Made by a program: the position numbers and the translations under genes. This document shows, in pieces, positions 1-27,642 of a stretch of DNA of 29,629 nucleotides (positions within the stretch are counted from its first letter, which is position 1; every line of letters begins with the position of its first letter). The notes under the pieces were generated by a model. The model did no database searches and was not told where the DNA came from. It worked only from the letters and a program-made list of their open reading frames with translations. The stretch comes from a virus: IMG/VR virus record IMGVR_UViG_3300009320_001035, positions 1 to 29,629 of that record; one strand, 5' to 3'.

Positions 1-32
1 GCCTCAACCGGGGCGTAGCATACCCTTACGAC

Positions 33-106
<74 letters not shown>

Positions 107-108
107 GT

Positions 109-138
109 GAGGCCAACCGGCTAGAACCGGTTGGCCTC
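109..138. terminator. Perfect 12-bp hairpin just after the tRNA
   Basis: A perfect inverted repeat (GAGGCCAACCGG, loop CTAGAA, CCGGTTGGCCTC) begins three bases after the tRNA. It probably terminates or processes the tRNA transcript. No T-run follows on either strand, so an intrinsic terminator of classical type is not proven. It could also be a boundary structure of the adjoining element. Confidence 0.55.
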
Positions 139-521
139 GCCGGTTAACGCAAGGCACCGTGGCCAGCCAGCCGCGGCGTCTCGCGTTTACCGCGAGTATT
201 CGCAAGAACTTGCGCCTGTCTCGACCGCCCCAAGCTCTCTCCGGCCCGCGGCCAGAGAGCGCATCTGCCGTCGCCCAGCCACCCCTCTCACGCCCCTCCG
301 CCAAAGAACTCTCTGACTCTCTCGTCGACCTCGGAGATCGGGTTAACAGGGGGTTGGGCCACCTCCCATGACACGGCCCCCGGTGGTTGCGGTCGCCCTG
401 CGGCCACAACGGTTCACGTCATACCGGTCTTCCGTGAATCGCTTCTGCTCCATTCCTGGTCTCCCTGGAAATGCGAGCCGAAGCCTAACGGGCTCACGCT
501 CACCGTGAACCGGGAAACAGG
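139..521. other. Gene-free stretch between tRNA and brxL
   Basis: No convincing gene is seen; the short open frames here have no recognisable product and no good ribosome binding site. It contains a GC-rich imperfect hairpin at 234-260 (GCTCTCT...AGAGAGC outer arms with GGCC/GGCC inside and a two-base bulge), a short palindrome at 201-214 (CGCAAGAACTTGCG), and a weak 5-bp stem at 494-508 (TCACG/CGTGA) just downstream of the brxL stop. Any of these could end the BREX transcript, but none has a T-tract. No integrase fragment and no second copy of the tRNA 3' end was seen. Confidence 0.5.
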
Positions 522-2645
522 CTACTTGTTCTGATGGCGGTAGATATCCACTTTCGTCTCCAAGCATGGACGAAGGGCCATGTCATGTGCGCCAACGCAG
601 AACCATGTCGTCGGCTTCTGGTAGAAGTCCAGGCCGCGGCCAATCTTGATCATCCACCCATTGTCAATCCTGATCTCACGGTCGTGCAGGTTTGGGTTGA
701 GTTCGATTTCCAGCACGACGTCGACCTCCAGAAGACTTTGTTTAAGCTCTTCCAGTCGATCTCGGACCTCGTCAAGTGAGGTGTTCTCGTCGTAACTGGT
801 TACCAATTTGATTCGCTTGACAGTCGAATGCTTGATCACCGCCTCGCAGACTCGAACGAAGTTCTGTATCTGATGGGTCAGGCGAACATAAGGATCCTCT
901 ACGATGACCTCATTCGCGCCCTGCAGGTATGGGGAGATGATCGATTCATAGCTGTATCCCGTGTCACCGTAGAGCATCGTGAAATGCTGCTCCTTAAGCT
1001 CCAGTCCAGTTGATGCTCCATGATTCTCAGCGACTTCTGGCTCAGCAACTACTGCGTCACCATCAGGTGTTGCCGCCATCACTGACGGATCCACGTCCGC
1101 TGTTACGTCGGCTTCAACTGAGTCAGTCCCAGTCCCCGCCATGGATGCCTTCGAGAGCGACCGGCGCAGGGGCTCCTGCGTTGCTGGGGCATTCTTGGAC
1201 TCGGGGCAGTAGACAATCACTTCCTCACCATCCGTCGTGAAGTAGGACAAGTTGATCCTGGAAAACTCGTCGTCTGGCTTGCGCTTATTCATCTGCTCCT
1301 TGACTCGTCGACGACATTCGACCGCATAGGCAACGTATTGCTCGAACTCCCTGTCGTCCGGCGGGCCTTCGGGGTGTAGAATCTTCAGTAAGGCGCAGGC
1401 CGTCTTCTTGATACCTTTCTCGTCCCGCCCCTCCACCGCCTTCCCCAGTTTGATCCGCCTTGTCACCTCTTCATAGCGATTCGTGTGAGAGAACTGGTAG
1501 TGGAATGCTTCAGCCATGTAATCCGTGATGAAGCCGTAGTTCATCGTGAGGTATTCACTGCTGTTCTTGAGCATCTCCCATCCTGGCAGGTAGCAGGCGA
1601 AGCGATCCATCACCGCCAAGTCAAACTCCTTGGGCAAGGGGATGAACAGATCGTGTTCGGTCGAGTGCACAAGTTGCTCGATCGAATGGTCGATGTTGCC
1701 CACGAATGCCATACTGGCATCGGCGATCACTTCGACGCCTCGCGAAAATCGGCCGTTTGCCAAGTAGTCCTTCATGATCTGGATGGTGTCGGGATCCCTG
1801 ATCTTAATCCCTGCTACCTCGTCGAAGGCCACGGTGTCCCAGAACCCCACGAGTCCGATTCGCTTGCGGGCGTTGTTATAGAAAAGCGTCGCCTTGGTCC
1901 CCTGGCCGCCGCTGATCAGCGTGGAATATGGCGAGAATTCGCTGAAGAAGTAGGACTTACCCGTCCCACGCGGGCCCAACTCGATGAAGTTGAAGTTTGG
2001 CTCCACGAGTGTCGCCAGCCGGGCCACGAAGTGAAACTTCAGCCGCTCGGAAATCTTGCTTGGCTCCAGACCAACGGAGCGAAGCACCACGTCCATCCAT
2101 TCATCGCGGGAAAACTCCTGGCGTCCCTTGACATAGCCGTCGAAGTCAAATCGGCTGAGTTGGATCGGACGGAGATCCTCGACATAGAAGGCGTAATCAT
2201 CGTCTTCGATCTCGTTGTAGCCAATCGTCACCTCGGCCCAGATACCACCCTCAAGAAGACGGTCGTTGTCGCGGTAGAACTTCTCTGCGATGGCGATTCG
2301 CTGGGAGTTGAAATTCTCGAGACCCGCCCAGTGCTTCTTCTCCTTCTCAACATACCGAACGTGAACCTTGTCAATGAAACGGTGTTTGCCCTTGGTGGCT
2401 ACCGTCGACTGGGCGGCATTGGCCTCGTCAGGCTTCACGTAGTTGTCCTGAAGTGTCGCGAGAACAGCTTCAAGCCCAGCTTGAATCTCCGCAGGCTCAT
2501 CACTGGCGCAATACCGAGCCAATAGGAACTCGAGCACGAACGTCGGCACGTTCGTGCCCTTCTTGATTCGGTGGAGCAGGTCTTTGCGCACAACCTTGCC
2601 GCCGAAGACACCGAGAAGCTTTTCGTCCAACGCGTCATTTGCCAT
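522..2645 (-). CDS. brxL: BREX protein BrxL (AAA+), with MITD1-like C-terminal domain
   Basis: A 707-residue protein starting at ATG 2645, three bases after the pglZ stop. The middle is the BrxL AAA+ core: Walker A GPRGTGKS at 224-231, Walker B VAFDE at 272-276 and a sensor-like segment FVGNID at 314-319. BrxL is the last gene of type 1 BREX and forms a ring-shaped DNA-binding ATPase; its usual C-terminus is a Lon-like protease fold. Here residues about 485-545 are an acidic, Ala/Thr-rich linker, and 549-705 instead resemble the phospholipase-D-like C-terminal (MIT_C) domain of eukaryotic MITD1. The signature HDREIR, DNGWMIKIGRGLDF and LRPCLETKVDI at 654-701 is nearly the same as I recall in MITD1. 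No Lon Ser/Lys catalytic motif is visible. The BrxL assignment is confident; the domain swap rests on motif recognition. Confidence 0.93.
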   Translation of the reverse strand: MANDALDEKLLGVFGGKVVRKDLLHRIKKGTNVPTFVLEFLLARYCASDEPAEIQAGLEAVLATLQDNYVKPDEANAAQSTVATKGKHRFIDKVHVRYVEKEKKHWAGLENFNSQRIAIAEKFYRDNDRLLEGGIWAEVTIGYNEIEDDDYAFYVEDLRPIQLSRFDFDGYVKGRQEFSRDEWMDVVLRSVGLEPSKISERLKFHFVARLATLVEPNFNFIELGPRGTGKSYFFSEFSPYSTLISGGQGTKATLFYNNARKRIGLVGFWDTVAFDEVAGIKIRDPDTIQIMKDYLANGRFSRGVEVIADASMAFVGNIDHSIEQLVHSTEHDLFIPLPKEFDLAVMDRFACYLPGWEMLKNSSEYLTMNYGFITDYMAEAFHYQFSHTNRYEEVTRRIKLGKAVEGRDEKGIKKTACALLKILHPEGPPDDREFEQYVAYAVECRRRVKEQMNKRKPDDEFSRINLSYFTTDGEEVIVYCPESKNAPATQEPLRRSLSKASMAGTGTDSVEADVTADVDPSVMAATPDGDAVVAEPEVAENHGASTGLELKEQHFTMLYGDTGYSYESIISPYLQGANEVIVEDPYVRLTHQIQNFVRVCEAVIKHSTVKRIKLVTSYDENTSLDEVRDRLEELKQSLLEVDVVLEIELNPNLHDREIRIDNGWMIKIGRGLDFYQKPTTWFCVGAHDMALRPCLETKVDIYRHQNK

Positions 2646-2648
2646 ATC

Positions 2649-5174
2649 TTACACCGTATAGTCGGTTTCGAGGTCCACCTTGCTGAACGTGGTCAACGTC
2701 GTCGGGTCCAGAGCCTTCACCGTGAACTTGCCCTCAAACTCAAGGTCCATCCGCAGCGTCACTTGCAGTGTCTCACCGGGCTTGATCGAGAGCGTTCGCG
2801 TCGCCGGATTCACCGGCCCGCCAGGCTTCGCCTCGCCGACTACGTCGCCCTTCTTGTTCTGTGCTTCCAGCAGTACCTCGAAACTCGACCCCATCGAGAA
2901 CAGATCTCCGGCGCCAACGCTGACCTCGACCACGGGCAGTCGTGTCGTAGTCTTCTTCGCGCCACGCTTGTAGTTCAGCGCCACTGTCGGTTGTTTGCCT
3001 GCCTTCTCCTCAGCTGCTTGCAGTCGCACCGCGATCACCGGCACGACTGCCTCCTGCAGCGATGCGCCACCGTGAAAATACCACTCGCCCGCGCGGTACG
3101 GCACCATAGCCCGAGGACCGGCGAGTTGACTGAAGTCGCCTCGAACACCAAGGTTCTCCGCAGGAATCACGAAGTTGGCGGCATCCGAAGAGCCATCCCC
3201 CAGGAGCATTCGTCCATGGATCGTTACCCAGTTGCCCTGTGGCTTGGCGCATACATCGCCCGCTTCGATGGCGGTATTCAGGTAGAAACCGTGGTCAGTG
3301 ACGATGACCGCGTCCTTGAATCCCTGGCCGCGCAGCTTGTGGATCGCGACCCGGATCGACTTGAGCGATTCGTGAATCAGCCTTAGCGCCATCTCCGGCG
3401 TCGATTCCATATGCTTGTCAATCGTCGTACTGCGAAGCACGAGTAGCTCAACCGAACCGTCGATCTCAGCCTTACCGCGAACGAACTCGGTCAGCAGCAT
3501 CTCTGCAAAGCGGTCGCCGTAGCGCTTCCGCAGCACGTCCATCCGCTGTGTGACTTGAGGCAAGGCTTGATCGCCCAGGGCCACAGTCATCTGGTCGTCC
3601 TTCTGAATGAGCTTCAGATCGCTACCAGCTCCGGGCAACAGGCTGGCCATGCCGACCGGTGTGACGCTGGGCAGTTGGGCGAAGGCCGCCTGCATCTCAA
3701 CTTGGCCGTCCTCGACAAGCTGCTTCTCCAACTCCACGCCCAGTTCATACCGCAGGGCGTCTATCAGCAAAACCGCAACGCGTCGGCCGCTCTCTTGGAG
3801 TTTGGGGACAATGAGCTTGTCGAATACATCTGCGTTTGCCAGCCGTCCCGCAGGAGGCCAGCCGGATTCCTCCAGGTGCCGAACGAAGAGATCCTGCACC
3901 TTATCAATGAGTCTCCGATACGCCGCCCGGGCATGCGGCACGACCTCCTCTACGCCATCCTGCTTGATGAGCAGGTCGCGTTCGGCCTGCTCAAACTCAC
4001 GCTGAAGGCGATCCACCTCACGAAGATTCGACGTGTAGAAGTCGATTAGCGCCTCCTGGCTGCGAGCGTGATCCGGCAGTTGCCGGTCGGCGTCTTCACA
4101 CTTCTCCACCAAGCTTACCGCCGCCTGGAGCAGCTGCCATTGGGCTTGGTTCTCACCCCGGCCCACCCAGACTGACCCAGCATGCCGCCCAAGGACTTCG
4201 CGGAGCTTATCAACGTTATCGAGTTTCAGCGCATTCACCGCCTGGGCGAAGAACGACCGCTCCTCGAACGGGAAGGTATCCCGCACACCCAGATCCTCGA
4301 TGCCTTTGCAGGCCTCGGGCAGGCCCAGCTCCTTCTCGATGCCTTCCGCCCGTTCGATGAATAGCGACTTCGTGAGGTCATACCCACGGAGCCGATTGCA
4401 CAAGTCCTCCACAAGCAGCTTGGCCTCATCGGCTGCCTGGGGGACGTCGGCCAATGCGGCGGGCAGGTCGACCGGAAGGTCAACGGCGAACTCGCTGAAG
4501 AGCAAGAATCGCCACAGCTCATCGGCAACGGGCGACCAGTTCTTACTCTTGGTCTTGAGCTTCAGCCCCAAGGTATCGGCCAGCAGCGTCTTCGCCTCGG
4601 CCGCCCAGGAATCATTAGCCTTCAAGCTCTCGATCTGTTTGTCCGTCGGCGCCAGCAGTGCGAACAAGATGTCCCGCGCGGACTCGACCTTGAGTTGAGC
4701 TTCGAGGTTCGGCCAGCCAGCCCCGCCGCCGACTGCGTCGATCACTTCGAAGCTGGGATTCGGATTGTCCGCGAAGATGCGGCGAATCTCGGTAGCTTGG
4801 TCTGCCTTCGCCTTCAGGCAGAGGCTCATGTACTCGTCACCGTCTCCCTCAGGGAAAGCCGCGCCGCAGGCCCCGTAGATTGCGAAGGGATCTCGCTGCT
4901 TGTCCTCGTCCGTCAATGGCGCGTTAGCGGGCACATAGATCAGCATGCCCTCGAGCTTTGTGTTCGGCTGTCCCAACACCTGGAGCGTTGCCAGGCATTC
5001 CTCCCGGCTCTCGATACTGCTCTCTGTAGTGTCCACCACCACGCAATTCTCGTCGGCTAATCCCAGGCAGAGCTCTCGGTATCTTTGGGCCGGATCGTAG
5101 ACCACGAGCACACCAGCCTTCTTGATCCGTGGGAGCAGGACCTCACGTTGAATGAATGTCTCGATCGTCATCAT
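2649..5174 (-). CDS. pglZ: BREX alkaline-phosphatase-superfamily protein PglZ
   Basis: An 841-residue protein typical of BREX PglZ, a core subunit with an alkaline-phosphatase-like metal-dependent fold. Recognisable motifs are RVAVLLIDALRYELG near residue 470 (first metal-binding Asp of the fold) and AVIVTDHGFYL near residue 628 (Asp-His metal ligands). The N-terminus (MMTIETFIQREVL) matches the usual PglZ opening. Two adjacent ATG codons (5174, 5171) follow GGTGA, a good Shine-Dalgarno; upstream in-frame GTG and TTG codons also exist. Its stop lies three bases before brxL, implying co-translation. A C-terminal beta-rich segment (about 730-841) has no function I can assign. PglZ is known to be essential for BREX defence and to associate with PglX. 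Confidence 0.95.
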   Translation of the reverse strand: MMTIETFIQREVLLPRIKKAGVLVVYDPAQRYRELCLGLADENCVVVDTTESSIESREECLATLQVLGQPNTKLEGMLIYVPANAPLTDEDKQRDPFAIYGACGAAFPEGDGDEYMSLCLKAKADQATEIRRIFADNPNPSFEVIDAVGGGAGWPNLEAQLKVESARDILFALLAPTDKQIESLKANDSWAAEAKTLLADTLGLKLKTKSKNWSPVADELWRFLLFSEFAVDLPVDLPAALADVPQAADEAKLLVEDLCNRLRGYDLTKSLFIERAEGIEKELGLPEACKGIEDLGVRDTFPFEERSFFAQAVNALKLDNVDKLREVLGRHAGSVWVGRGENQAQWQLLQAAVSLVEKCEDADRQLPDHARSQEALIDFYTSNLREVDRLQREFEQAERDLLIKQDGVEEVVPHARAAYRRLIDKVQDLFVRHLEESGWPPAGRLANADVFDKLIVPKLQESGRRVAVLLIDALRYELGVELEKQLVEDGQVEMQAAFAQLPSVTPVGMASLLPGAGSDLKLIQKDDQMTVALGDQALPQVTQRMDVLRKRYGDRFAEMLLTEFVRGKAEIDGSVELLVLRSTTIDKHMESTPEMALRLIHESLKSIRVAIHKLRGQGFKDAVIVTDHGFYLNTAIEAGDVCAKPQGNWVTIHGRMLLGDGSSDAANFVIPAENLGVRGDFSQLAGPRAMVPYRAGEWYFHGGASLQEAVVPVIAVRLQAAEEKAGKQPTVALNYKRGAKKTTTRLPVVEVSVGAGDLFSMGSSFEVLLEAQNKKGDVVGEAKPGGPVNPATRTLSIKPGETLQVTLRMDLEFEGKFTVKALDPTTLTTFSKVDLETDYTV

Positions 5175-5176
5175 GT

Positions 5177-5314
5177 TCACCAAGCCAACGCTTCCGGAGC
5201 CTCTATGAATAGCTGCCGTAGTTCATCCACTACATCCCGCTGACGTTTCATCTCCAGCCATACATAGCGGCGCTGGCTGCGTTTGAAGGGGTCAGTGCTC
5301 CTATTCCGCTTCTC
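5177..5314 (-). pseudogene. Start-less small reading frame between pglX and pglZ (remnant or tiny gene)
   Basis: The gap between pglX and pglZ contains a 45-codon open frame that looks protein-like (charged and amphipathic, for example DPFKRSQRRYVWLEMKRQRD near its start and LRQLFIEAPEALAW at its end) and stops with TGA at 5179-5177, overlapping the pglZ initiation region. An in-frame TGA precedes the first codon, and no good start codon exists before ATG 5251, which would give only 24 residues (preceded by CTGGAG). It could be the 3' relic of a lost gene, or a leader peptide coupled to pglZ. I recognise no family. Confidence 0.35.
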
Positions 5315-5322
5315 TCAGATCA

Positions 5323-8300
5323 TCATGCCTTCACCTCGGCAACGATTCTGTCCAGTTCGTCGTCGGTGAGGTCCTTAGGTTGCCATTCAATGGTCTTCTT
5401 GACCTTGCCACTCTTGGTCTTCTTCTCGACCTCCACCTCGTGCCAGAGCTTGTCTTCCAGGTCGTGGGCGATGGCGTAGCTGCGGTCGGCGTGACTGGCG
5501 CGGACGACGCGGTCGGGCCAGATGGACAGGGCCAGGTGGGCCCAGTCGTAGTCGCCGGCTTCGAGCTTCTCCCAGGTTTCCTTGAGCCGCTTCCGCCAGG
5601 GCTTGTGCTGGAAGAGCTTCCACAGCGGGGCGGCGGTGATCTGCACGCCATCGTTGAGGTCGGGCCTCCAAAACTTGGCGATCCGCAGCAGTTCATCGCG
5701 GAAGTCCGTGACTTCTAGTTCCAGATCGCTCATCCGTTCAAGGTCCTTCTCCTCGGCCGACGATCGGTTGGGCTTACTGCGCAGGTCGGCGGCCCCCTCG
5801 GCCACCTGCTTGAGCTTGGGCTCGACGAAGTCATTCACGCAGGTGTAGAGCGTCTGGTTCGTCAGACGGTGGTAGTAGAGCCACAGCGTATACGAGCCCG
5901 ATGGCGTGGACAGCGGCCAGTAGATCGGTGCGTAGCGTCGGCTCTTTGAATATTGGGATAGATGGTCCGCAAAGAAACTATTTGCGTTCGTGAAATACTG
6001 GCGAAGCGAGCCGGCGTCGACCAGACTACAGATATCCTGCTCAAGGTCGCCGTCGCCTAAGTACCCGATCACGTTCTGCACATGGCGCGTGATATCGTGC
6101 TGGCCACCAGGACTGTCTTCTAGTAGTCCCCCATAGTTCACCTCCACAGGATAGGCCCGTTTCTCCGCTTCGCAGAGCTCGCCAAGTGTCCCCGGTGGTG
6201 TTCTGGGCAATTCTGCGAGTGGGTCTCTGGGAGGACTGCACCGATGTGCATCGTCGTCTACGAGACGAATGTCCCATCGGCCAACCGCGACGCCGACGGC
6301 ATACGACAGCAGACTCCTCGCCACTTCTCTCGTCTCCGATATGCCGACTAGACCCAAGTCTGCGCGGGCGTTGAGAACACGCGAGTGATGGACGCCCAGT
6401 GTCTGACACAGTAGTTCGATCCGCCGGTCGGCGTAGTATGACTTCTTGGTCACTGAGCGACTGGCATTACCCGCGGCGACCTCGTCGCGAATAACGTTCT
6501 CCAGTGGTTTTTGATAGGCCTCCGCAAACTCTCCATCATCCAACACGGAATCTGGCAAGTCACCAGGGTGGCACCCGACGGTAGAGGCGATCTCCGCAAT
6601 TGACTCCGTGTCAATACCGTACAATCGCGTAACGATGTGTTCGATCTCATGGGTGCGTTCGAGAACAACCGAGACCTCGTCCTCATGCTCACGTTTGTCG
6701 CGATTTGTTGCCTCTTGAAGTCGCTGGTCAGCTCTGAGGTGATGGGCCACTCGAGGGATCGTGAACATTAGGGTCGCCTCGTCAGGGGTGAATTCGGCCT
6801 CTCTGGCGCGAACAACTGCTGCACACAGTCGCCCTAGTGATTCTGCCGTGGGTGAATCGAGGCTCGGGAACGGAATCTGCTGAAGCAATCCCAGTTGATA
6901 GCTACGTGCGGCACTACCAGATGTCACGGCATCTGCTGCAGCCATGAGCATTTCCAGAAAGAACGCAAACGTTCGCGACATTGCGATGGCAAGATACGCC
7001 AATGAATTGCGCTCAGGCAGTATCAGGTTCCCTGTATGACTGAAGATGGTAGCTGCGGGTAGAACTCGGGGGCTAAAGGAACTTGTCGTGCGAACACTGT
7101 AGGTAATGCCTGGCCGGAAGTACCATTCCTTATTCTGGACCCGGGCCCCGGGACACCCGGCTTCCATGTCCTGCCCCTGGTTTGCCCAATCGACTCTGAG
7201 GTGTATGTCGCCTAGATAGGGGGCATATTCTCCGCCTTTTGCGAAAGGCACCCAGCGTTCCACTTCATCAGCGGGGCATTCGTACCAGAGCCGAACGAAT
7301 CGAAAATCGTCGCCAGTGCACAGGCCCGATCTAAACTCAATACCATGGCTAGAAAAAGCAGGCATCGCCACATATGCATGGCGCAGCTTTCTTCCGGTAG
7401 CGTAGGCAACTCGGTGACCTGGCAGCTGCCGAAACTCCGCTAAACCGCCATGGAAAGCAACGTGAGGCCCTGGAAGAGAACCACGTCTCGTATGTGTGAT
7501 CGCCTCCAGCAAAGACGTTCCCTTGTCTGAGTAGCGAAGTACGGAGTAAGAGTGGAGAACTGATCGCCTTGTGTGAGATTTTTCCAGACAGTAAGCGGCT
7601 GCTTCGACCAATGCATCGTCAAGAACCCCATGGCCAAGGTCAGCGAGGGACCGAATCTCTGCGTCCTCGAATAACGCCCGTAGTCGGAAGTCAGTGAACG
7701 AATGCAGGAAGAGGGCTGTCCTGCTGGTGATCGCGCCAAGGCGGCCTTGGGGTGCCAGAATGTCGACTCCTCTGAGAACGAAGCAACCCAGAACATCTTG
7801 TGCACTTTCAGGGCACGATCTGCGTATCACATCTCGAGAGGGCCAACTGGGCTCGCCGAACGGAGGATTCATCAGAACAACGTCAAAGCGGTGCCGCCAC
7901 AGATCAATGAAGGCGAAGCCCTGGGCCGCATCTCGAGCGAACATCCTCCGTCGCGCCGCCTCAGTGCCATGGGCATGTTCGGCGTAACCTTCAAGCGCTG
8001 CCAGAACAAGTGCTTCTGCACGATTCCAGAAGTCTTCTTTTCCGCCGGGGATGGCCTTGTAGTACCGCACCTTCGGATTGGCCTGGGTTTCCTCGGTAAG
8101 GCCGAACTCCATCACGCGGAAGAGCGGGGCCTTTTCGACCCATTCTTCCTTGCCCTGGGCGATGGCATCGGCGAGGGATTCCTCGATCTTCAGCAGGCTG
8201 CCGGCCTCGCCGGCGAGTTCCATCTCCTTCCAGACGGTGCGGACCAGGGCGCACAGGGCCTCGGCCATGCGGGTGGTGGCGCGGACTCGGCTGTCTTCGG

Positions 8301-10053
8301 GCACGTTGAGCACGCGGCGGATGAGCGATTCGAGCCGATCATCGCGGAGGCCCTTGAGGAACTCCTCGAGCATGTCGGCCTCGCCGGGCATCGACTCGGC
8401 GCAGACGATGTTGGACCGCTGAATCTGCGGGCGATCCTGGGCCTTGACCTGTTGGGCTTGCCAAGATCTCTGCGCCCGCAGCCAGAGGGACAGGCCGGCG
8501 ATCTGCACGGCGCGGGGGTCGATGTCAATGCCGTGGATATTCTGCTCGATGATCAGACGCGGCACGTCTCGCAGGAAATCCTCTTTGCCACCGTAGGTCT
8601 CAAGGAGCGGATTCAAGCCCTCGGGGCGGACGAAAGCGTCGGCCCCCAGGTCGGCCTCGATGTCCCAGGCCTCGTCGTGGATGCGCTCGAAGAGGTCGAA
8701 GGCGTAGAGGCCGAAGTGCATCGACCCGCATGCGGGATCGAGCATCTTGATGCCACGCGGGTCCTTGAGCGGCCGATGTGGAACATAGACGGGTTGGGCT
8801 AGCAGCTCTTCCTGGGGAACATCGCCGATATCGGCGATTAGCGCGGCCCGAAGGGCCTCGTACAGGGCAAGAACGGCCTGCCACTCCTGGCCTTCGGGAG
8901 CCCTGTCCATGGAGCGATAGCCTCGCTGGGCCCCAAACAAACGAATCCAGAGCTCCAGAGAAGACCCGTGCCAGGGATCGCCTTGCTGAAAGGCCTGGAT
9001 GCCGCTCCATGCGAGCTCCTGGGGGTCGCCCCAGCCCCTGGCTTCACAGAGGGCGTATCCGCTTATCGCGAGGGCAAGGTACTGGACGTCGTCCCAGGTG
9101 GGGTCTTCAGGCAGATTCGAGAAATCGCTTCTGTAGGCGGCCGCGATTCCTTCGCTCGCTTCCTGGGCGAAGCCGAAACGGTCAGGGTCTTCGAGGAAGA
9201 CCTCATTGGGTCGGCGGAAGAGGTAGTGGCAGGAGTCTCTGAGGCTAGTTTGCCCCTTGGTCATCTCATACCAGATTCGGCCGAGGGTGTTGTCGGTGAG
9301 GAACTCGACGACGTAGCGCGGGGTGAAGAACTGGTTGCGGACGGCTAGTTCGCGACTGTTGCGCGGGGCCTGGGAGGCCTTCCGCATCGCCTTGCGTTCT
9401 TCGACGGAGTTGAAGTACTGGTAGATCCAGCCGATGGTCTCATCCTCAGCCCAGAGCGGGGCGATGTCGGCGTGGTTGATCTGCTCCAGCACGGCCAGGA
9501 GCGCCGCTTCGCGGGGAAACAACCGGCCCTGAGGGCTGAAGCGGTCGAAGAGGACGGGCAGATCGACGGCGAACTCATCGAAGACGCTGAAGAGGAAGAC
9601 GCGGTAAGCGTCGCCGGTCTCCCCCAGAGCCGTGCCAGCCAGACGCTGATAGAGCTGGAAGCCCTTGGACTGATGGCCCTTGGCGATGGACTCGATGAGC
9701 AGGCCACGCGCCTCAGCCATACGCAAGGCGCAGAGGCGGTTGAGAACGGTGAACGCCTGCTCGCGGACGATGCGCTTGAGGGCCTCCTGGCAGGCCTTCT
9801 TGGCTTTCGCGGCGGTGCTGGTATCGGCAGACGCCAGGTAGTGCTCCATTGTTTCGCGCAATAGGCGGGCTGTTTCGCGGCGGGAGTCATCGAGATGCTT
9901 GAGCTTAGCCAGGTCGGTCACGTCGCCGGTGGGCGGGTCAAGCCCGTGGTCGTTCTGAAGCTGGCGCGTGAACTCCTCGGCCAGCAGCGATCGGGCGTCG
10001 CCAACGAAGCGGGCGAGGCGGTTCCGGGTTGACTGATCAAACGCCATGGTCAC
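5323..10053 (-). CDS. pglX: BREX adenine-specific DNA methyltransferase PglX
   Basis: A protein of 1576 residues from GTG 10053 (adjacent to the brxC stop), or 1574 from ATG 10047. PglX is the BREX N6-adenine methyltransferase that marks self DNA. The SAM-binding motif DPACGSMHFG is near residue 438, and the catalytic motif IV is NPPFGEP near 728. An N-terminal helical region (1-230) precedes the methylase fold. The target-recognition region follows the motif, and a long C-terminal block (about 1250-1576, with YAPIYWPLSTPSGSYTLWLYY) ends in a Lys-rich tail. Common type 1 PglX proteins are about 1200 residues, so this one is large. Bases about 5940-8040 are visibly poorer in GC (50-55% in most lines counted by hand) than the flanks (62-72%), suggesting exchange of the specificity-determining core. 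Confidence 0.95.
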   Translation of the reverse strand: MTMAFDQSTRNRLARFVGDARSLLAEEFTRQLQNDHGLDPPTGDVTDLAKLKHLDDSRRETARLLRETMEHYLASADTSTAAKAKKACQEALKRIVREQAFTVLNRLCALRMAEARGLLIESIAKGHQSKGFQLYQRLAGTALGETGDAYRVFLFSVFDEFAVDLPVLFDRFSPQGRLFPREAALLAVLEQINHADIAPLWAEDETIGWIYQYFNSVEERKAMRKASQAPRNSRELAVRNQFFTPRYVVEFLTDNTLGRIWYEMTKGQTSLRDSCHYLFRRPNEVFLEDPDRFGFAQEASEGIAAAYRSDFSNLPEDPTWDDVQYLALAISGYALCEARGWGDPQELAWSGIQAFQQGDPWHGSSLELWIRLFGAQRGYRSMDRAPEGQEWQAVLALYEALRAALIADIGDVPQEELLAQPVYVPHRPLKDPRGIKMLDPACGSMHFGLYAFDLFERIHDEAWDIEADLGADAFVRPEGLNPLLETYGGKEDFLRDVPRLIIEQNIHGIDIDPRAVQIAGLSLWLRAQRSWQAQQVKAQDRPQIQRSNIVCAESMPGEADMLEEFLKGLRDDRLESLIRRVLNVPEDSRVRATTRMAEALCALVRTVWKEMELAGEAGSLLKIEESLADAIAQGKEEWVEKAPLFRVMEFGLTEETQANPKVRYYKAIPGGKEDFWNRAEALVLAALEGYAEHAHGTEAARRRMFARDAAQGFAFIDLWRHRFDVVLMNPPFGEPSWPSRDVIRRSCPESAQDVLGCFVLRGVDILAPQGRLGAITSRTALFLHSFTDFRLRALFEDAEIRSLADLGHGVLDDALVEAAAYCLEKSHTRRSVLHSYSVLRYSDKGTSLLEAITHTRRGSLPGPHVAFHGGLAEFRQLPGHRVAYATGRKLRHAYVAMPAFSSHGIEFRSGLCTGDDFRFVRLWYECPADEVERWVPFAKGGEYAPYLGDIHLRVDWANQGQDMEAGCPGARVQNKEWYFRPGITYSVRTTSSFSPRVLPAATIFSHTGNLILPERNSLAYLAIAMSRTFAFFLEMLMAAADAVTSGSAARSYQLGLLQQIPFPSLDSPTAESLGRLCAAVVRAREAEFTPDEATLMFTIPRVAHHLRADQRLQEATNRDKREHEDEVSVVLERTHEIEHIVTRLYGIDTESIAEIASTVGCHPGDLPDSVLDDGEFAEAYQKPLENVIRDEVAAGNASRSVTKKSYYADRRIELLCQTLGVHHSRVLNARADLGLVGISETREVARSLLSYAVGVAVGRWDIRLVDDDAHRCSPPRDPLAELPRTPPGTLGELCEAEKRAYPVEVNYGGLLEDSPGGQHDITRHVQNVIGYLGDGDLEQDICSLVDAGSLRQYFTNANSFFADHLSQYSKSRRYAPIYWPLSTPSGSYTLWLYYHRLTNQTLYTCVNDFVEPKLKQVAEGAADLRSKPNRSSAEEKDLERMSDLELEVTDFRDELLRIAKFWRPDLNDGVQITAAPLWKLFQHKPWRKRLKETWEKLEAGDYDWAHLALSIWPDRVVRASHADRSYAIAHDLEDKLWHEVEVEKKTKSGKVKKTIEWQPKDLTDDELDRIVAEVKA

Positions 10054-13000
10054 TCAATTCTCGATCTTGATGGTCACTTCGATATCGCTGTAGACCGCCA
10101 TCTCGGCCTTAAGGGCCTGGAGGGAACGGATCAGCTCCTCCAGGCCGGCGGCACTGTTGATGGAGGCGGGGATGCTGACGCTGCGGGTGAGCCTGGTCTT
10201 GCCGGACTTCTGGGCCTTCTTGCGTTCTTCTTCAAGCCGGGCCAACTGACGCTCGCGGGCCGTCTTGATGATGCCATCGCGGATGGCGTCGACCTGCGAG
10301 CGAATGACGAACGACTGGTTGAGCAACTTCTTGATACCGGCGAGGTCCTCGGTGGCCTCGAGGGTAATGCCATCGAGCTGGTTGAGGACCTGGGACTGCT
10401 CCTCGCGAAGCAATTCCGTCCACTCGGGCAATCGCTGGAACTTTTCCTCGACCTCCTTGATGGATTCCTGTTGATCCTTGGCCATCGCGATGGCGGCATC
10501 GCGGGTGCGAGCCTTGATGGCGGTGAGTGTAGTACTCAGGTCAGTCGCATGGGCGTGGAAATCCTCTTGGGCTAGGCGCTGGCCGAGTTGAGAAAGTTCC
10601 TCAGCCAAGTCTTGGCGAAGCTGACCGGGCACGCCCGAGTCGGGCAGGGATTCGATCTCACTGCGATGCTGCTGAAGGTCGCGGATGGTCGGCTCCAAGC
10701 CGTTCTTGAGGGCACGGTCGACGTCGGTAGCCCACTTGAGTCCGTCGTAGAGCGGGGATTCTTCGCTGCCCAGGCGTTGTGGCGCATCGGATGCGTCGGT
10801 CAGCAGCACGTCGGCCAATTCCTGGTTCAGAGAGCGGACCGTGTCGGCACCGGGCAAATCTAGCGCGTCGAGCTTCTCAGCAAGCGGGCCAAACTGATGC
10901 TGGAACTGCGGGAACTGCTTCGTGGCGGTCTTGCTGATCTCGTCTTCGAGAGGGATGACGGTATCGCCGATCAGATCGGTCAAACGCTCTGCGGCCCTGG
11001 CGAGCACCTCGTTGGATGGGCGCTCATCGCGGAGGGAAACGCCGACTGTCTTGAAGGCGTTGTTCGTGCGGAGGGCGTCGATGGCCTGCTGCCCGTTTAC
11101 CGTGACCTCGCGGCCGGAGACTTTGAGCTTGATCTCGCCTGCGACCAGCATGGCGGCTACGAGGTAACGCAAAGTGTCTTGCGACCAGCCGAAAGGGGCG
11201 TCGGTGAAGTGGTTGATCATCCGCTTGCCCTCGACCGTGCCATGGCGGTCGATGTGGTCGCGAATGCTGACGACAGCCTTGTGGTCGGTCTTGACATGCG
11301 GCGTGCCGCCGCTGACCTGGACGAGGTTCAGCGGATCGATTGACGAGTTCACCGCCTTGAGGTTACCGGCGCGGAGGAACTTTTCGGCCAAGCCGGTTTC
11401 CGCACGCACGGGCGCTTCGCCATAGCGGTCGAAGATCTGGTCGGCCACGTCAGCCAGATGCTTCTTGGACGCTTCAACAACGTTGTGATCGATGCTCTCG
11501 ACGGCCGTGGTCTGCCCGCGGAAGACGAACGAGCCCTGGGCCAGGCATCGCTTGAGCAGGTGTTGGAGTTCGCCGGTGAGCTTCGTCGCTCGATCGGCCT
11601 GGGCTGCGCAGTACTCTTTGACCTCGGCGTCGGGGTCATTGCGGTATCGCTGGACGATCTCGCGACACCGGTAGATTTCGGCAACCTTGTCGTCGATCTC
11701 CTGCGAGGTGCGGCCCAGCAGGTGGATCGTGTTCTGCGAACTGCGCTGACGCGATTCCTCGACCAGTCGCGTGCGGGCGGTGTCGTAGTCCGTAGGGGAG
11801 ACGAACTCGACAATCGTCTGAATGGTCTCGCGTTCGCCAGCCAGGCTCGAAACCATCGACCCGGCTACCGCCTTCAGGCCCGAAGTGACCGCAAGGGAAC
11901 CGTGCAGTCGCGTCGACGGCAACGGGCTGAATGCCTCGCGAAGGGCTTCGCTCTGAATCCGACGCGTTTCAATGGTGCGGAGTGGAATCTCGCCGCGTTC
12001 CTGGTCGATGTCGTTAAGCTTCTCGCTGAAGAAGCAGAGGTTCCCATCCTTCTCACCGAACGGCACGATGGCGTCGTTGGTCAGGTCCGCAATTGCGGCA
12101 TCGATCTTGTCACGCTGTGAAGGAGCATCTATGGCCGGATGCATCAGGCTCGTGACGTTTTGATTCGTCACCGGCATGTTTCCCAGAATCTGGAGAATGG
12201 CCACCGTTTTGGCGACATCCTGGTGCAGCTGCGAGTCCGGAAAGCGGATGGCGACCTTCCCCACGGCCTTGTGGACCGACGGGGATGTACGGCGAACATC
12301 CTTCTCCAGGGAGTCGTAAAGGGTGACCGTAGTTGCCAACCAACCGACTGGCTTGTTGGCGACGGGTTCCTGGTCGTCGGGACCTTCGACGAGGATGTCC
12401 TGGACGACCTTGATGGCCGAGCGAAGTCCGATCCCACCGGTCGACTTCGCCAGAGTACCCAGCAGATGCAGTAGAATATCGAAATGGGCAGGAAGGAACG
12501 GATAGAGGTCGACGAAGGCCGCCTTGTCGAAGTCCGAGTCGTAGTAGCGTGCGTCCTGGAGCTTCGTATTGTGTCGCAGGGCCTGACCGTGCTTATCGAA
12601 AAGGCCACCAACGACCTTCTCGCCATCGGGCGACTTGCCCAGCAGACGTCGATGGCAGATCTCCTTGATGTCGTTCGATTCCAGATCGACCTGGATTGGG
12701 AAGCGGTCTTTGAGTTTGTAGAGTTCGGGAGAGTTCAATGACGCCCGGGGATCGTCCTCGGTCAGTGTTTGCTGCGCTGTCCCAACAATCCACACTTTGC
12801 CGTTACCAATGGCCTTGAGATTCTCTGCGAGGCCTTGCAGCCTGAGGATGAGCTCCTTGCGGCTGCCGACATATTGGCCGACTTCATCAATGATGAAGAC
12901 GATAGACTCCTTGCCGGTGGTTTCCCGGACAATGTCGATCATCTCCCTCACGCGCTCGTTCTCGAACGTGACGAAATCCGCTGTCTCTGTGTTGAAGGCG

Positions 13001-13674
13001 CTAGGCGACTTGAACAGATTCGGGTACATCTCGTGGGCGACCTCTGGGATCAGGCTGTCGATCACCAAGGGGTCGTTCTGCACGTCCTTCCACGGGGTCT
13101 CCAATTCCTTCTGAATCCTCCCCGTGAACTCCTCATAGCGTCCGTCCTTCTGCAACTTTCGCTCGAAAGCGGCGACCTTAATATTCCGCGAGTACCCGGC
13201 CCACTGTAGGACCTTGTAATAGAGAACGGTGGACACATCCGCCATCGTGGCACCCGCGAGCATTTCGCTGGCCAAATCCAGGAGAACGACAGCGGCTGGA
13301 TACTTGCTGGCAACGGTTGCGAGCAATGCCTTCGTTTGCGGCGTGTTGAGTCTGTCTTGGAGGTGCTTCACGAATGACGTTCCATCGACGGTGACGCTTT
13401 CATCCAAAGCGAGGCCGAGGTACTTCGTAAATGAGCTCTTGCCAGAACCGTAGAAGCCGGAGACCCAGACGCCGACTTCGTTCTCACCGCCCACGTCCAT
13501 CGCCGCCTGCATACGGGTGAGAAGCCTCTCAAGCTGCTCCTCAATGCTGTCGGTAACGATGTACTCGGTGATCTCTGCCTTCAGTCTCGCCTCTTGTGAA
13601 GCGCCGTAGGTGATCACCTTCTCGATCGTCCGGTAGATGTCCTTGGCCGGATCGAACAGGCTCTTTATCTGCAT
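10054..13674 (-). CDS. brxC: BREX P-loop ATPase BrxC (PglY family)
   Basis: A 1206-residue protein typical of BrxC/PglY, the large ATPase of BREX systems. The N-terminus (MQIKSLFDPAKDIYRTI) is characteristic. Walker A is GFYGSGKS at 73-80, and Walker B with a following acidic residue is IVFIIDEVGQYVG at 258-270. The C-terminal third (about residues 880-1150) is rich in Glu, Gln, Leu and Arg and probably coiled. ATG 13674 is preceded by AGAGGACCTGAAAC, a fair ribosome binding site. Twenty bases separate it from brxB, and its TGA abuts the GTG start of pglX. Known roles are from the family: BrxC is required for both methylation and defence in characterised systems. Confidence 0.96.
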   Translation of the reverse strand: MQIKSLFDPAKDIYRTIEKVITYGASQEARLKAEITEYIVTDSIEEQLERLLTRMQAAMDVGGENEVGVWVSGFYGSGKSSFTKYLGLALDESVTVDGTSFVKHLQDRLNTPQTKALLATVASKYPAAVVLLDLASEMLAGATMADVSTVLYYKVLQWAGYSRNIKVAAFERKLQKDGRYEEFTGRIQKELETPWKDVQNDPLVIDSLIPEVAHEMYPNLFKSPSAFNTETADFVTFENERVREMIDIVRETTGKESIVFIIDEVGQYVGSRKELILRLQGLAENLKAIGNGKVWIVGTAQQTLTEDDPRASLNSPELYKLKDRFPIQVDLESNDIKEICHRRLLGKSPDGEKVVGGLFDKHGQALRHNTKLQDARYYDSDFDKAAFVDLYPFLPAHFDILLHLLGTLAKSTGGIGLRSAIKVVQDILVEGPDDQEPVANKPVGWLATTVTLYDSLEKDVRRTSPSVHKAVGKVAIRFPDSQLHQDVAKTVAILQILGNMPVTNQNVTSLMHPAIDAPSQRDKIDAAIADLTNDAIVPFGEKDGNLCFFSEKLNDIDQERGEIPLRTIETRRIQSEALREAFSPLPSTRLHGSLAVTSGLKAVAGSMVSSLAGERETIQTIVEFVSPTDYDTARTRLVEESRQRSSQNTIHLLGRTSQEIDDKVAEIYRCREIVQRYRNDPDAEVKEYCAAQADRATKLTGELQHLLKRCLAQGSFVFRGQTTAVESIDHNVVEASKKHLADVADQIFDRYGEAPVRAETGLAEKFLRAGNLKAVNSSIDPLNLVQVSGGTPHVKTDHKAVVSIRDHIDRHGTVEGKRMINHFTDAPFGWSQDTLRYLVAAMLVAGEIKLKVSGREVTVNGQQAIDALRTNNAFKTVGVSLRDERPSNEVLARAAERLTDLIGDTVIPLEDEISKTATKQFPQFQHQFGPLAEKLDALDLPGADTVRSLNQELADVLLTDASDAPQRLGSEESPLYDGLKWATDVDRALKNGLEPTIRDLQQHRSEIESLPDSGVPGQLRQDLAEELSQLGQRLAQEDFHAHATDLSTTLTAIKARTRDAAIAMAKDQQESIKEVEEKFQRLPEWTELLREEQSQVLNQLDGITLEATEDLAGIKKLLNQSFVIRSQVDAIRDGIIKTARERQLARLEEERKKAQKSGKTRLTRSVSIPASINSAAGLEELIRSLQALKAEMAVYSDIEVTIKIEN

Positions 13675-13694
13675 GTTTCAGGTCCTCTGTTGCG

Positions 13695-14267
13695 CTACCC
13701 ACCTACGTGAACCGACCGGTAATTCCCGTCTTCGGGATAGAAACCCATGAATTTCAGGCGTGTTTTTCCGGTTCGTTCGCCAGGATATAGGAACACAGTC
13801 GGCACGTGGAACTTCCCGTAGAGCTGACTCTCAATGGCACCGATTCGCATGTAAGGATGAAGTGCTTCCAGATTGGTCACCAGGACTATCGCGTCCGACT
13901 TGCCTTCAAGTTTCGCCAACAGCTGCTCAAGTCGCTGCTGGAGCGAACCGTTCGTGAGGGCGTTTTCCAGTGATTCGTTGGTCTTCTCCCATGCCAGCGG
14001 TGCCTTGCGATCGGCAGTAAGCCAGATTTTCCTGAGCGATGCGGATGCAAGAATCTCGGCTATCTGGTCCGCGACGGAGAAGCAATGCACGTCCCAACCT
14101 TCGTTGCGAAGCCGGGCCACCCAGGCAGGGAGCGTCCGCTTCACGTCGAGTATCTGCCCCGGCGGAAACACCAGGTAATATATGGGTTCAAAGCTGGCGT
14201 GTGCCAGATCCCGGCCTTGGCGAATCCGTTCGAGCAGCTCATCGAAGTTAGCCTTCAGCGATGGCAT
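13695..14267 (-). CDS. brxB: BREX protein BrxB (DUF1788)
   Basis: A 190-residue protein matching BrxB (DUF1788): the segment EPIYYLVFPPGQILDVKRTL near the N-terminus, HCFSVADQIAEIL, and a C-terminal FLYPGERTGKTRLKFMGF are typical. Biochemical function is unknown; BrxB is a small core component in most BREX types. ATG 14267 overlaps the end of brxA by 20 bases, implying translational coupling. Length is normal for the family (about 190-200). Confidence 0.94.
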   Translation of the reverse strand: MPSLKANFDELLERIRQGRDLAHASFEPIYYLVFPPGQILDVKRTLPAWVARLRNEGWDVHCFSVADQIAEILASASLRKIWLTADRKAPLAWEKTNESLENALTNGSLQQRLEQLLAKLEGKSDAIVLVTNLEALHPYMRIGAIESQLYGKFHVPTVFLYPGERTGKTRLKFMGFYPEDGNYRSVHVGG

Positions 14268-15033
14268 CCATCAACTCCTTCATGTCGTCGCACCGCCAAC
14301 TGATCCGCGTCACGTCGCCTGCCGTTTGGACGATGAAGACGCCTTTCACTGCAAGCCGTTTCAATTCTCCCACCACATCCGAACGGTTAAGACCGAAAAG
14401 CGTCCAGTCCGGATGAGCGACGACCCGATTGTCGCCGAGCGGGGCGAAGTGGAGGTCGTAGGCCAGGACGATCGTTACGCGAGGCTCGATGCGGAAATCG
14501 AGTATCTTCCGGACGCTTCTTGATCCTCGCCCCAGCAGGCCAAAGTCTGCGCAAGCACCTGTGAGATAGGCGGCAACGCGGCGGACCGTGCTCTCCGACC
14601 ATGGCTTCACCGTGAGGCCGTCCTGATTCGCCCGGACCACAAATTCTCGTGCGTCCTGATTCGACAAAGCGTCGCGGCCGCCGGAGTATGAGCCCCAGAA
14701 GACCTGCCTGACGAAATCAGCCAGGATAGCATTCGCTCGACACGCATACACAAAGAGCAGTTGCTCGAATTCCTTGGACGAGAGGATGGGACGCAGAAGG
14801 CCCAGATACATCGCAGGCCTGCCGTCGTCGGCCATCAGGCGCGGGCAGAAACACTCCGCCACAAGGTTCCGCAGCCGCCGAGCAGACTTCTTCGGGAACC
14901 GCCCAGACTCCAGAGCAACCTGGCACAGCCTTGCTGAACTCATCCCAGGCTCCCAGAGATCAAGGAGAGCTCTGGTTTCTTCAACCATGCCCAGACCGGC
15001 CTGGAGCTGAGTTGTGTAGACACGTCTTGGCAT
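14248..15033 (-). CDS. brxA: BREX protein BrxA (DUF1819)
   Basis: A 261-residue protein of the BrxA family (DUF1819), a small DNA-binding winged-helix protein in characterised systems. I chose ATG 15033 (MPRRVYTTQLQAG) because it sits in a TAATG overlap with the brxE stop and matches the usual BrxA opening. An upstream extension to 15111 would only overlap brxE. Family-like segments include FPKKSARRLRNLVAECFCPR, PILSSKEFEQLLFVYACRAN and the central WSESTVRRVAAYLTGACADFG. It is followed by brxB with a 20-base overlap. Confidence 0.92.
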   Translation of the reverse strand: MPRRVYTTQLQAGLGMVEETRALLDLWEPGMSSARLCQVALESGRFPKKSARRLRNLVAECFCPRLMADDGRPAMYLGLLRPILSSKEFEQLLFVYACRANAILADFVRQVFWGSYSGGRDALSNQDAREFVVRANQDGLTVKPWSESTVRRVAAYLTGACADFGLLGRGSRSVRKILDFRIEPRVTIVLAYDLHFAPLGDNRVVAHPDWTLFGLNRSDVVGELKRLAVKGVFIVQTAGDVTRISWRCDDMKELMDAIAEG

Positions 15034-15533
15034 TACTTGTCCGTGAAGTAGGGGTAGACCTCTGTGCAGCGAGCCAGCCCTGTGGCGTAGTACGATGCGA
15101 CTTGTCCCCATGAAGCTCCCTGACGTAGGTCGTCTATCGAACCAACCTTCACAGGTCCGACGCCCTCGTAGTCCTCGGTAGTAGAAATCTTGTTGAGATA
15201 TGTAAAGGCCACTTCGGGGCTTACGACATGCTCGGCAATCACTTGGTTGTGCTGTTGAAGAGCGTCGTGAAGGCTCCGCTCCATATCCTCCGGAAGCCGG
15301 AAGATGTGGAAGACGTTGCCGATGCCGATACGCTCATCGTGAAGGACTGCCGCGACCCGACTTGTCGCATGGTACTGCGCTAGAATCTGGGTTCGAGGGA
15401 AGATCGGACCGAGAAAGGCCTGGCTCCCAGTGCCAAAGAAAGAACTGGACCACCAGCGCTTCTCAGTCTGTTCACCGAGAAAGCCAACAACCGCCCGGAG
15501 AACTGCGAGCTCTCGAAGTTGGTCAACCTTCAT
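15033..15533 (-). CDS. brxE: BREX protein BrxE
   Basis: A 166-residue protein that I recognise as BrxE, a small protein of unknown function described as a component of type 6 BREX. Recognisable segments are VVGFLGEQTEKRWWSSSFF near the N-terminus, ILAQYHATSRVAAVLHDE, and GIGNVFHIFRLPED in the middle. ATG 15533 follows GGTGAACAGC (Shine-Dalgarno GGTGA, spacing 5); in-frame GTG 15542 and TTG 15545 are less likely starts. It is first in the operon and its TAA overlaps the brxA ATG. Presence of brxE in an operon that ends with brxL instead of brxD/brxHI is unusual. Confidence 0.85.
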   Translation of the reverse strand: MKVDQLRELAVLRAVVGFLGEQTEKRWWSSSFFGTGSQAFLGPIFPRTQILAQYHATSRVAAVLHDERIGIGNVFHIFRLPEDMERSLHDALQQHNQVIAEHVVSPEVAFTYLNKISTTEDYEGVGPVKVGSIDDLRQGASWGQVASYYATGLARCTEVYPYFTDK

Positions 15534-15756
15534 GCTGTTCACCAAATGTCCATGCGACGTATTCCGATATCAGCTACGGTCCCGCATGCTTTGCTCAGAG
15601 CCACCTAGCCGACGCTCCACCCTCTCACGATGAGACTGCCAGTGTTGCCCGACCATCCACCCGAACCGCTTCCCTTCCTGTGCCAACATGGAGCGTTGCC
15701 TTGGACAGATTCATACAGATGGCCAGCTCGTCGGTAGTCAACACCGTGTCCTACGG

Positions 15757-15772
15757 ATTGGGCATGCGCAAT
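15757..15772. promoter_or_regulatory. Dyad, possible operator of BREX
   Basis: ATTGGGCATGCGCAAT is palindromic at 14 of 16 positions (half-sites ATTGNGC/GCNCAAT) and lies about 50 bases downstream of the predicted transcription start and about 225 bases before brxE. It could bind a dimeric regulator. The evidence is symmetry alone. Confidence 0.3.
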
Positions 15773-15826
15773 TCCTTCCCGCACGGGAGAATAACCGCCC
15801 CCGCGCCTCAAGACGGGCAACTGAGG

Positions 15827-15856
15827 ATGTTAACCGCAAGTGCTGGATGCTGTCAA
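15827..15856 (-). promoter_or_regulatory. Sigma70-like promoter for the BREX operon
   Basis: On the minus strand a perfect -35 TTGACA (15856-15851) is followed after 18 bases by TAACAT (15832-15827), matching four of six -10 positions. It points at brxE and predicts a start near 15820, giving a leader of about 280 bases. It lies directly beside the phage-gene remnant, so the promoter may have come with the BREX segment. Confidence 0.42.
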
Positions 15857-15869
15857 ACATTGGCGTAAC

Positions 15870-16055
15870 CTACGGCGGATCACGCCAGTTGTCGTCGCCG
15901 AGGATTTCGTCGATGAAGTGGAAGAGCATCTCGGTGCCGTCGGTGCCGGTGACGGTTTCGCGGAGCCAGACGGGCGTGCCGACGGGGACGGGGAGGTACT
16001 CGGGGTCCTTCAGATCGGCCAGGTCGACGCCGTTGCCCGCTGTGGTCTTCCTCAC
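15870..16055 (-). pseudogene. C-terminal remnant of a phage structural gene
   Basis: A 61-codon frame from GTG 16055, most of which duplicates the C-terminus of the phage protein ending at 17264. Shared segments are GNGVDLADLKDPEYLPVPVG and TEMLFHF, followed by EILGDDN here against EVLGDDN there. The poly-serine end of the full gene is missing and replaced by a short unrelated tail. The preceding 240 residues of the full-length protein are absent. The GTG overlaps the stop of the small frame upstream (CCGTGAGG), so it may still be translated. It marks the boundary between phage-derived DNA and the BREX promoter region. Confidence 0.75.
15888..16038 (-). repeat. 151-bp direct repeat, copy A
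   Basis: This copy aligns without gaps to 17300-17450. I count 14 mismatches by hand (about 91% identity). Both copies are read in the same frame on the minus strand, and some changes alter the protein (WLRETVTGTD against WLHEAITGAG), so the copies are old relative to a fresh duplication. Confidence 0.85.
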
Positions 16056-16240
16056 GGCTTCGTCTCTTGGGCGCTGAGGATGTCGACGGCACGGCGGGCG
16101 ATGACCCGCACCAGCCAGTTTCGTACGTCGCTTACCTGCTGCCGAGCCGGCCGGAATAGCTCCTGCTGCTCATTTGCGCAACCCGTTTTCTTGGTGTATT
16201 CTGCATCACGGCGAACCGTCTTGGAAATGGACCTCCGCAA
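16052..16240 (-). CDS. Uncertain small ORF downstream of the DUF4145 gene
   Basis: A 62-codon frame from TTG 16240 to TGA 16052, basic overall (for example TVRRDAEYTKKTG and NWLVRVIARRAVDILSAQ). It has no clear ribosome binding site. The frame stays open upstream into the end of the neighbouring gene with no ATG, which suggests the 3' end of a truncated phage gene as much as an intact small gene. Its stop overlaps the GTG of the phage-gene remnant. No family recognised. Confidence 0.3.
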   Translation of the reverse strand: MRRSISKTVRRDAEYTKKTGCANEQQELFRPARQQVSDVRNWLVRVIARRAVDILSAQETKP

Positions 16241-16252
16241 TGTCGGAGGCCC
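16229..16252 (-). terminator. Hairpin downstream of the DUF4145-like gene
   Basis: CCTCCG-caatgt-CGGAGG forms a 6-bp stem extended by GG/CC after a single mismatch, about 30 bases beyond the stop at 16281. No T-tract follows. It may weakly terminate the upstream gene, but the TTG of the small ORF lies inside it. Confidence 0.3.
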
Positions 16253-16280
16253 CGAAGCTACATTGACCTCGGGACGTTCC

Positions 16281-17066: not shown

Positions 17067-17263
17067 TAGGGTCTCCGGTTGTGTTGCTCTATGGCAGTAG
17101 TTAGGATTCGCTCGGCCAACGAATCGCCGGAGGCGGTACTCGCCAGGCAAATGCTGCGTCCGACCAGCGGAGTCAACACGCTCCATTCTACCGTCTTGCC
17201 TGCTGTCTCTACCATGGGTTCATTGTGCCCTCCGCAGCCGCCCCCGGCAAGCACGACCTGATC

Positions 17264-18178: not shown

Positions 18179-18189
18179 GTTTCCTCCCG

Positions 18190-19032: not shown

Positions 19033-19041
19033 CGCATCGTC

Positions 19042-21257: not shown

Positions 21258-21259
21258 CG

Positions 21260-21736: not shown

Positions 21737-21762
21737 GCCTCACGCTCCCATCCGCCGGCCGG

Positions 21763-22215: not shown

Positions 22216-22227
22216 TGCTTGTCTCTC

Positions 22228-22895: not shown

Positions 22896-22896
22896 G

Positions 22897-24234: not shown

Positions 24235-24236
24235 GT

Positions 24237-26574: not shown

Positions 26575-26580
26575 GGTTCC

Positions 26581-27641: not shown

Positions 27642-27642
27642 C

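What the first reader, a model, noticed from the sequence alone, without database searches (positions are those of the whole stretch)
522..1000. BrxL with an MITD1-like phospholipase-D-type C-terminal domain instead of Lon protease
Residues 549-705 of BrxL carry HDREIR, NGWMIKIGRGLDF and LRPCLETKVDI, a signature I know from the C-terminal domain of human MITD1, which binds membranes during abscission. The Lon-like domain expected here, with its catalytic Ser/Lys, is not seen. A eukaryote-like membrane or lipid-binding fold tethered by a flexible linker to a phage-defence AAA+ ring would suggest a different effector mechanism.
Basis: partly seen in the sequence, partly recalled or inferred. Interest (0 to 1): 0.82.

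Follow-up and report, generated by a model that had tools for sequence, protein, structure and literature searches.

The report
BREX BrxL with MITD1-like PLD domain
A bacterial anti-phage motor protein (BrxL) carries, in place of its usual tail, a domain closely related to one in the human cell-division protein MITD1; this fusion is common in bacteria and already published as a probable DNA-cutting tail, but its close kinship to MITD1 was not mentioned in the papers I could search.

Summary
The BrxL gene (window 522-2645, minus strand, 707 aa) has BrxL_N and the AAA+ ATPase, a disordered linker (about 495-547) and a C-terminal Pfam MIT_C domain (563-703, E=2e-51). The domain is about 50% identical to human MITD1, and its AlphaFold model (pLDDT 94) matches MITD1 structures at 1.5 A; no Lon match was found. 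The interpretation needs correcting. The fusion is not rare: 167 of 187 BrxL reading frames I collected (partly with MIT_C bait) carry MIT_C, and Rakesh & Krishnan (NAR 2026) report 1030 of 2913 type-1 BrxL with this C-terminal 'HKD-endoDNase'. Nor is it especially eukaryotic: MIT_C also ends a DruE3-like Druantia helicase, a dynamin-like GTPase and other bacterial proteins. The PLD signature H-x-R-x4-D is almost invariant (H and R in 150 of 151 distinct domains; D in 138); human MITD1 has N at the last position. A DNA phosphodiesterase (nuclease) effector on a DNA-loaded ring is therefore more likely than membrane binding, but no assay was possible. What appears unreported is that MITD1's domain is nearest to this BrxL subgroup (97/88 support), which suggests, without proving, a bacterial defence origin for a human ESCRT-associated domain.

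The parts
522..2645 (-). brxL, 707 aa
2217..2609 (-). BrxL_N domain (residues 13-143)
   Evidence: Pfam PF20442 E=2e-44
1248..2189 (-). BrxL AAA+ ATPase domain (residues 153-466)
   Evidence: Pfam PF13337 E=3e-118
1005..1163 (-). disordered linker, about residues 495-547
   Evidence: pLDDT under 50 in the full-length model
537..959 (-). MIT_C / PLD-fold domain (residues 563-703) in the place of the Lon-like domain
   Evidence: Pfam PF16565 E=2e-51; MITD1 4a5z/2ymb by sequence and by fold
663..686 (-). HxRx4D signature: H654, R656, D661
   Evidence: H and R in 150 of 151 distinct domains, D in 138 (N 12, S 1); human MITD1 has N
2649..5183 (-). pglZ
   Evidence: PADLOC PglZ, E=0
5323..10053 (-). 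pglX methyltransferase, 1576 aa
   Evidence: NCBIfam BREX_1_MTaseX over cut-off
10054..13674 (-). brxC ATPase
   Evidence: NCBIfam BREX_BrxC over cut-off
13695..14267 (-). brxB
   Evidence: PADLOC BrxB E=4e-109
14248..15111 (-). brxA (true start probably downstream; the match begins at residue 28)
   Evidence: PADLOC BrxA E=1e-116

Best explanation
This is a complete type-1 BREX operon (brxA-brxB-brxC-pglX-pglZ-brxL) whose BrxL belongs to the 'PLD/HKD-tailed' variant. Proposed mechanism: the BrxL N-terminal and AAA+ parts assemble as a ring on DNA, as shown for a Lon-type BrxL. The flexibly tethered C-terminal domains, of the MIT_C/MITD1 branch of the PLD superfamily, act as a phosphodiesterase that nicks or cuts the bound phage DNA, using H654 as nucleophile and R656 and D661 in the H-x-R-x4-D site. 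Because the domain carries only one such motif, two domains would have to pair to build an active site. They could pair within a ring or between two rings, and so also take over the ring-pairing role of the Lon-like domain. Shown here: the domain, its fold (as a high-confidence model), the operon, the near-invariant signature, and recurrence of the family on another defence ATPase. Inferred: catalysis, pairing and the DNA substrate.
For: Domain identity by profile, sequence and fold. Complete type-1 operon. H, R, RGLD and a distal R are invariant or nearly so from BrxL to a dynamin fusion and distant family members at 25-30% identity. A Planctomycetota DruE3-like helicase ends in the same family with the same HDR motif, and a Druantia III DruE, whose last PLD domain is predicted active, was reported to cleave ssDNA and dsDNA, with a mutation in that PLD pocket abolishing defence (preprint PMC13192584). 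A published survey infers an active HRD endoDNase for the BrxL variant (PMC12839542). A Lon-type BrxL binds DNA as a ring and pairs rings through its C-terminal domain (PMC10164562).
Against: No biochemical evidence exists for BrxL-MIT_C in the papers I could read. The canonical HKD lysine is arginine throughout, and I found no proof that HxR PLDs are active other than indirectly through DruE; I did not compare the E. coli ECOR19 DruE sequence itself. The aspartate is N in about 8% of domains and in MITD1. The related human protein is described as membrane-binding.
Confidence: 0.62

Rival explanations
1. Membrane/lipid tether: the domain binds inner-membrane phospholipids as MITD1 does, placing the BrxL ring at the site of phage DNA entry, or perturbs the membrane.
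For: About 50% identity and a 1.5 A fold match to MITD1, whose PLD domain is described as membrane-binding in the title of Hadders et al. 2012 (cited in PMC9477494). One relative is fused to a dynamin-like GTPase.
Against: The fusion partners BrxL and the DruE3-like helicase act on DNA. The strongest conservation is of the HxRx4D signature, which lipid binding alone would not require. MITD1 itself differs at the D position.
Confidence: 0.13
2. Non-catalytic assembly module: the domain only dimerises and pairs two BrxL rings or docks other BREX proteins, as the catalytically dead Lon-like domain does in other BrxLs.
For: The Lon-like domain mediates ring-to-ring pairing and has no conserved protease site (PMC10164562). 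A single switch between MIT_C and Lon suffices on the BrxL tree, so the two are interchangeable at the same place.
Against: Near-invariant H and R are hard to explain by assembly alone.
Confidence: 0.2
3. Sequence artefact or eukaryotic contamination.
For: High identity to a human protein.
Against: The domain is in frame within BrxL in the window and in about 145 BrxL reading frames from many phyla and plasmids.
Confidence: 0.005

Closest known systems
BrxL with C-terminal HKD-endoDNase (Rakesh & Krishnan 2026, PMC12839542; cites Li et al. 2025, not held)
   Same: BrxL N-terminal and AAA+ parts with a PLD/HKD-like C-terminal domain with an HRD motif in the place of LonP; 1030 of 2913 type-1 BrxL
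   Different: The paper does not mention MITD1 or the two BrxL MIT_C subgroups
Human MITD1 C-terminal PLD-like domain (PDB 4a5z, 2ymb)
   Same: Fold (1.5 A), about 50% identity, RPCxETxVDI tail, H and R of the signature
   Different: MITD1 has an N-terminal MIT domain that binds ESCRT-III, and HxRx4N instead of HxRx4D
Lon-type BrxL (PDB 8emc, 8emh)
   Same: Residues 2-474 align throughout (E=3e-124)
   Different: Lon-like C-terminal domain, absent here
Druantia III DruE (YprA-family helicase with C-terminal PLD domains)
   Same: A DruE3-like protein (L225) ends in an MIT_C-family domain with the HDR motif
   Different: SF2 helicase, not AAA+; tandem PLD domains are described in the literature

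Membership tests
Pfam MIT_C (PF16565) | Profile match over the curated cut-off | tested here: met
   174.1 bits against 25, positions 1-142/142
Pfam MIT_C (PF16565) | MITD1-type fold | tested here: met
   TM (query-normalised) 0.85-0.87 to 4a5z/2ymb
MITD1 (the eukaryotic protein) | N-terminal MIT domain | tested here: not met
   The N-terminal parts are BrxL_N and BrxL ATPase
BrxL | BrxL_N plus BrxL AAA+ ATPase | tested here: met
   PF20442 and PF13337; TIGR02688 over cut-off
Lon-type BrxL (TIGR02653) | Full-length match including the Lon-like C-terminal domain | tested here: not met
   545 bits, below the cut-off of 628, stops at residue 484; no Lon-C profile hit
Type-1 BREX | brxA, brxB, brxC, pglX, pglZ and brxL in one operon | tested here: met
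PLD/HKD superfamily, catalytic member | PLD fold | tested here: met
   Next-best fold hits after MITD1 are F13, Streptomyces PLD and PLD3, at weak E-values of 0.0025-0.02
PLD/HKD superfamily, catalytic member | HxKx4D motif | tested here: inconclusive
   HxRx4D: lysine replaced by arginine in practically all members
PLD/HKD superfamily, catalytic member | Phosphodiesterase/nuclease activity | not testable with these tools
   needs an assay

The most novel reading that the evidence does not exclude
The PLD-like domain of the human abscission factor MITD1 descends from the C-terminal effector domain of a bacterial anti-phage protein (BREX BrxL subgroup A), captured by early eukaryotes and partly disarmed (HxRx4D to HxRx4N) as it became a membrane-binding ESCRT cofactor.
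Probability: 0.4. Interest if true: 0.75.

Novelty: new member of a known kind. Interest (0 to 1): 0.45.

Why it matters
It shows that a large share of BREX systems end in a probable PLD-type effector, so BREX has more than one restricting machinery, and it offers a concrete test with active-site mutants. It also ties a human ESCRT-associated domain, 50% identical, to a bacterial anti-phage protein: a candidate case of eukaryotic cell biology borrowing from phage defence.

Tried and rejected
Eukaryotic contamination: rejected (many bacterial homologues). Lon-like fold: rejected. MITD1 grouping with the non-BrxL fusions L003/L110: rejected (AU p=0.0014). Whether MITD1 lies inside subgroup A or beside it: not resolved (AU p=0.58; only one eukaryotic sequence was to hand, 148 columns). 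Phage records in the public collection: no MIT_C match. Papers on the MITD1 structure (PNAS 2012) and on Menshen/BrxL (Li 2025) are not held, so MITD1 catalytic status was not checked. Model coordinates are not exposed, so I could not measure whether H654, R656 and D661 cluster. A tblastn of plasmids with the DruE-like C-terminus gave nothing, and the ECOR19 DruE sequence was not obtained.

Full report
Observation. The minus-strand gene 522-2645 encodes 707 aa. Pfam places BrxL_N at 13-143, BrxL_ATPase at 153-466 and MIT_C at 563-703 with E=2e-51. phmmer against the PDB aligns residues 2-474 to the BrxL structures 8emc/8emh and 561-703 to human MITD1 4a5z/2ymb at about 1e-39; the Lon-type model TIGR02653 falls below its cut-off and stops at residue 484, while TIGR02688 (N-terminal part plus ATPase) passes. 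An AlphaFold model of 545-707 built from 57 homologues has pLDDT 94.3 and pTM 0.89; Foldseek finds MITD1 at 1.4-1.8 A and then, weakly, PLD superfamily proteins. In the full-length model residues 495-547 are disordered.

Surroundings. Upstream in the operon are pglZ, pglX, brxC, brxB and brxA, a complete type-1 BREX. The operon's 3' end lies 0.4 kb from a tRNA-Met gene (33-106). From about 18 kb on, GC rises from about 0.58 to 0.67 and phage genes follow (tape measure protein 19042-21213, head decoration 28755-29600). The record is an IMG/VR virus contig.

How common. One genome-wide scan with the MITD1-like subgroup as query gave 155 confirmed stretches, of which 80 loci were kept, from Pseudomonadota, Cyanobacteriota, Chloroflexota, Planctomycetota, Bacillota, Thermodesulfobacteriota and others; apart from contig-end fragments and broken frames all are BrxL C-termini. 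A profile survey found MIT_C over the cut-off in 50 of 1752 searched genomes across seven groups, including the seven centre genomes that were chosen because they have it. Among 187 BrxL reading frames collected by several routes, 167 carry MIT_C, 19 the Lon-like domain, one neither, and none both; the collection is biased towards MIT_C by the baits. Where enough upstream sequence was held, 94 of 101 loci have pglZ. Rakesh & Krishnan (PMC12839542) report 1030 of 2913 type-1 BrxL with an HKD-endoDNase in place of LonP and an HRD motif; their text does not mention MITD1, ESCRT or Druantia. PADLOC's BrxL model PDLC02508 already spans the full length, and RefSeq names some of these proteins 'MIT C-terminal domain-containing'.

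Subgroups and evolution. BrxL MIT_C domains fall into subgroup A (this window; RPCxETxVDI tail; 45-52% identical to human MITD1) and subgroup B (about 28-37%). MITD1 groups with A: 98/92 in the larger tree (with Hymenobacter) and 97/88 in the thinned one. A position with the non-BrxL fusions is rejected (AU p=0.0014), but inside versus beside A is not resolved (AU p=0.58). The BrxL N-terminal plus ATPase tree is congruent: A, B and Lon-type each form a group, apart from three deep B sequences, and one change between MIT_C and Lon suffices (quick method). The breadth in bacteria and the placement of the one eukaryotic sequence favour a bacterial origin of MITD1's domain; with one eukaryotic sequence, 148 columns and no firm root this remains an inference.

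Mechanism. Across 151 distinct domains H and R of the H-x-R-x4-D signature are present in 150 each, and the last position is D in 138, N in 12 and S in 1; RGLD and a distal arginine (R692) are nearly or fully invariant. Distant members keep it too: a dynamin-like GTPase fusion of Thiodictyon, a Sel1-repeat protein next to a methylase and an Mrr-type nuclease, and a DruE3-like helicase of Planctomycetota (in the helicase the HDR motif aligns, with a short insertion before the D). A Druantia III DruE has a terminal PLD domain predicted to be active; the purified protein cleaves long ssDNA and dsDNA, and a mutation in that pocket abolishes defence (preprint PMC13192584). Human MITD1 has N at the D position. 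I therefore favour a DNA phosphodiesterase acting from the BrxL ring. Membrane binding, known for MITD1 from the literature, is not excluded, and an assembly-only role like that of the dead Lon domain (PMC10164562) is a serious rival.

Verdict. Observation confirmed; interpretation partly supported. As an architecture it is published and widespread, so this is a new member of a known kind. The kinship with MITD1, which I did not find stated in the papers searched, is the part worth following.

Noticed in passing
window 1-18000 against 18000-29629: A complete BREX operon of lower GC (about 0.58) sits between a tRNA-Met gene and phage tail/head genes (GC about 0.67) on an IMG/VR contig; it may be cargo of a prophage or an island beside one. 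No second copy of the tRNA 3' end was found.
   Followed up: partly
window 15888-16043 and 17300-17455: A 156-nt direct repeat (90% identical) flanks a DUF4145 gene (16281-17186); the right copy lies in the 3' part of an open reading frame (17264-18409) next to the phage genes, which hints at an insertion beside that frame.
   Followed up: partly
L003 5640-8483: Plasmid protein of Candidatus Thiodictyon syntrophicum: dynamin-like GTPase with a C-terminal MIT_C domain (947 aa).
   Followed up: partly
L225 23-5734: DruE3-like helicase of a Planctomycetota genome ending in an MIT_C-family domain, next to an AAA ATPase resembling NsnB of Menshen.
   Followed up: partly
L226 410-10945: Eco57I-type methylase, Mrr-type nuclease and a MIT_C plus Sel1-repeat protein in a row: a possible undescribed restriction-like cluster.
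   Followed up: partly
L004 7452-8501: 349-aa plasmid protein of Paenarthrobacter with an IF2_N domain and a C-terminal MIT_C domain.
   Followed up: no
L014 and L015: Tepidimonas fonticaldi carries two BrxL-MIT_C genes on one contig about 20 kb apart.
   Followed up: no
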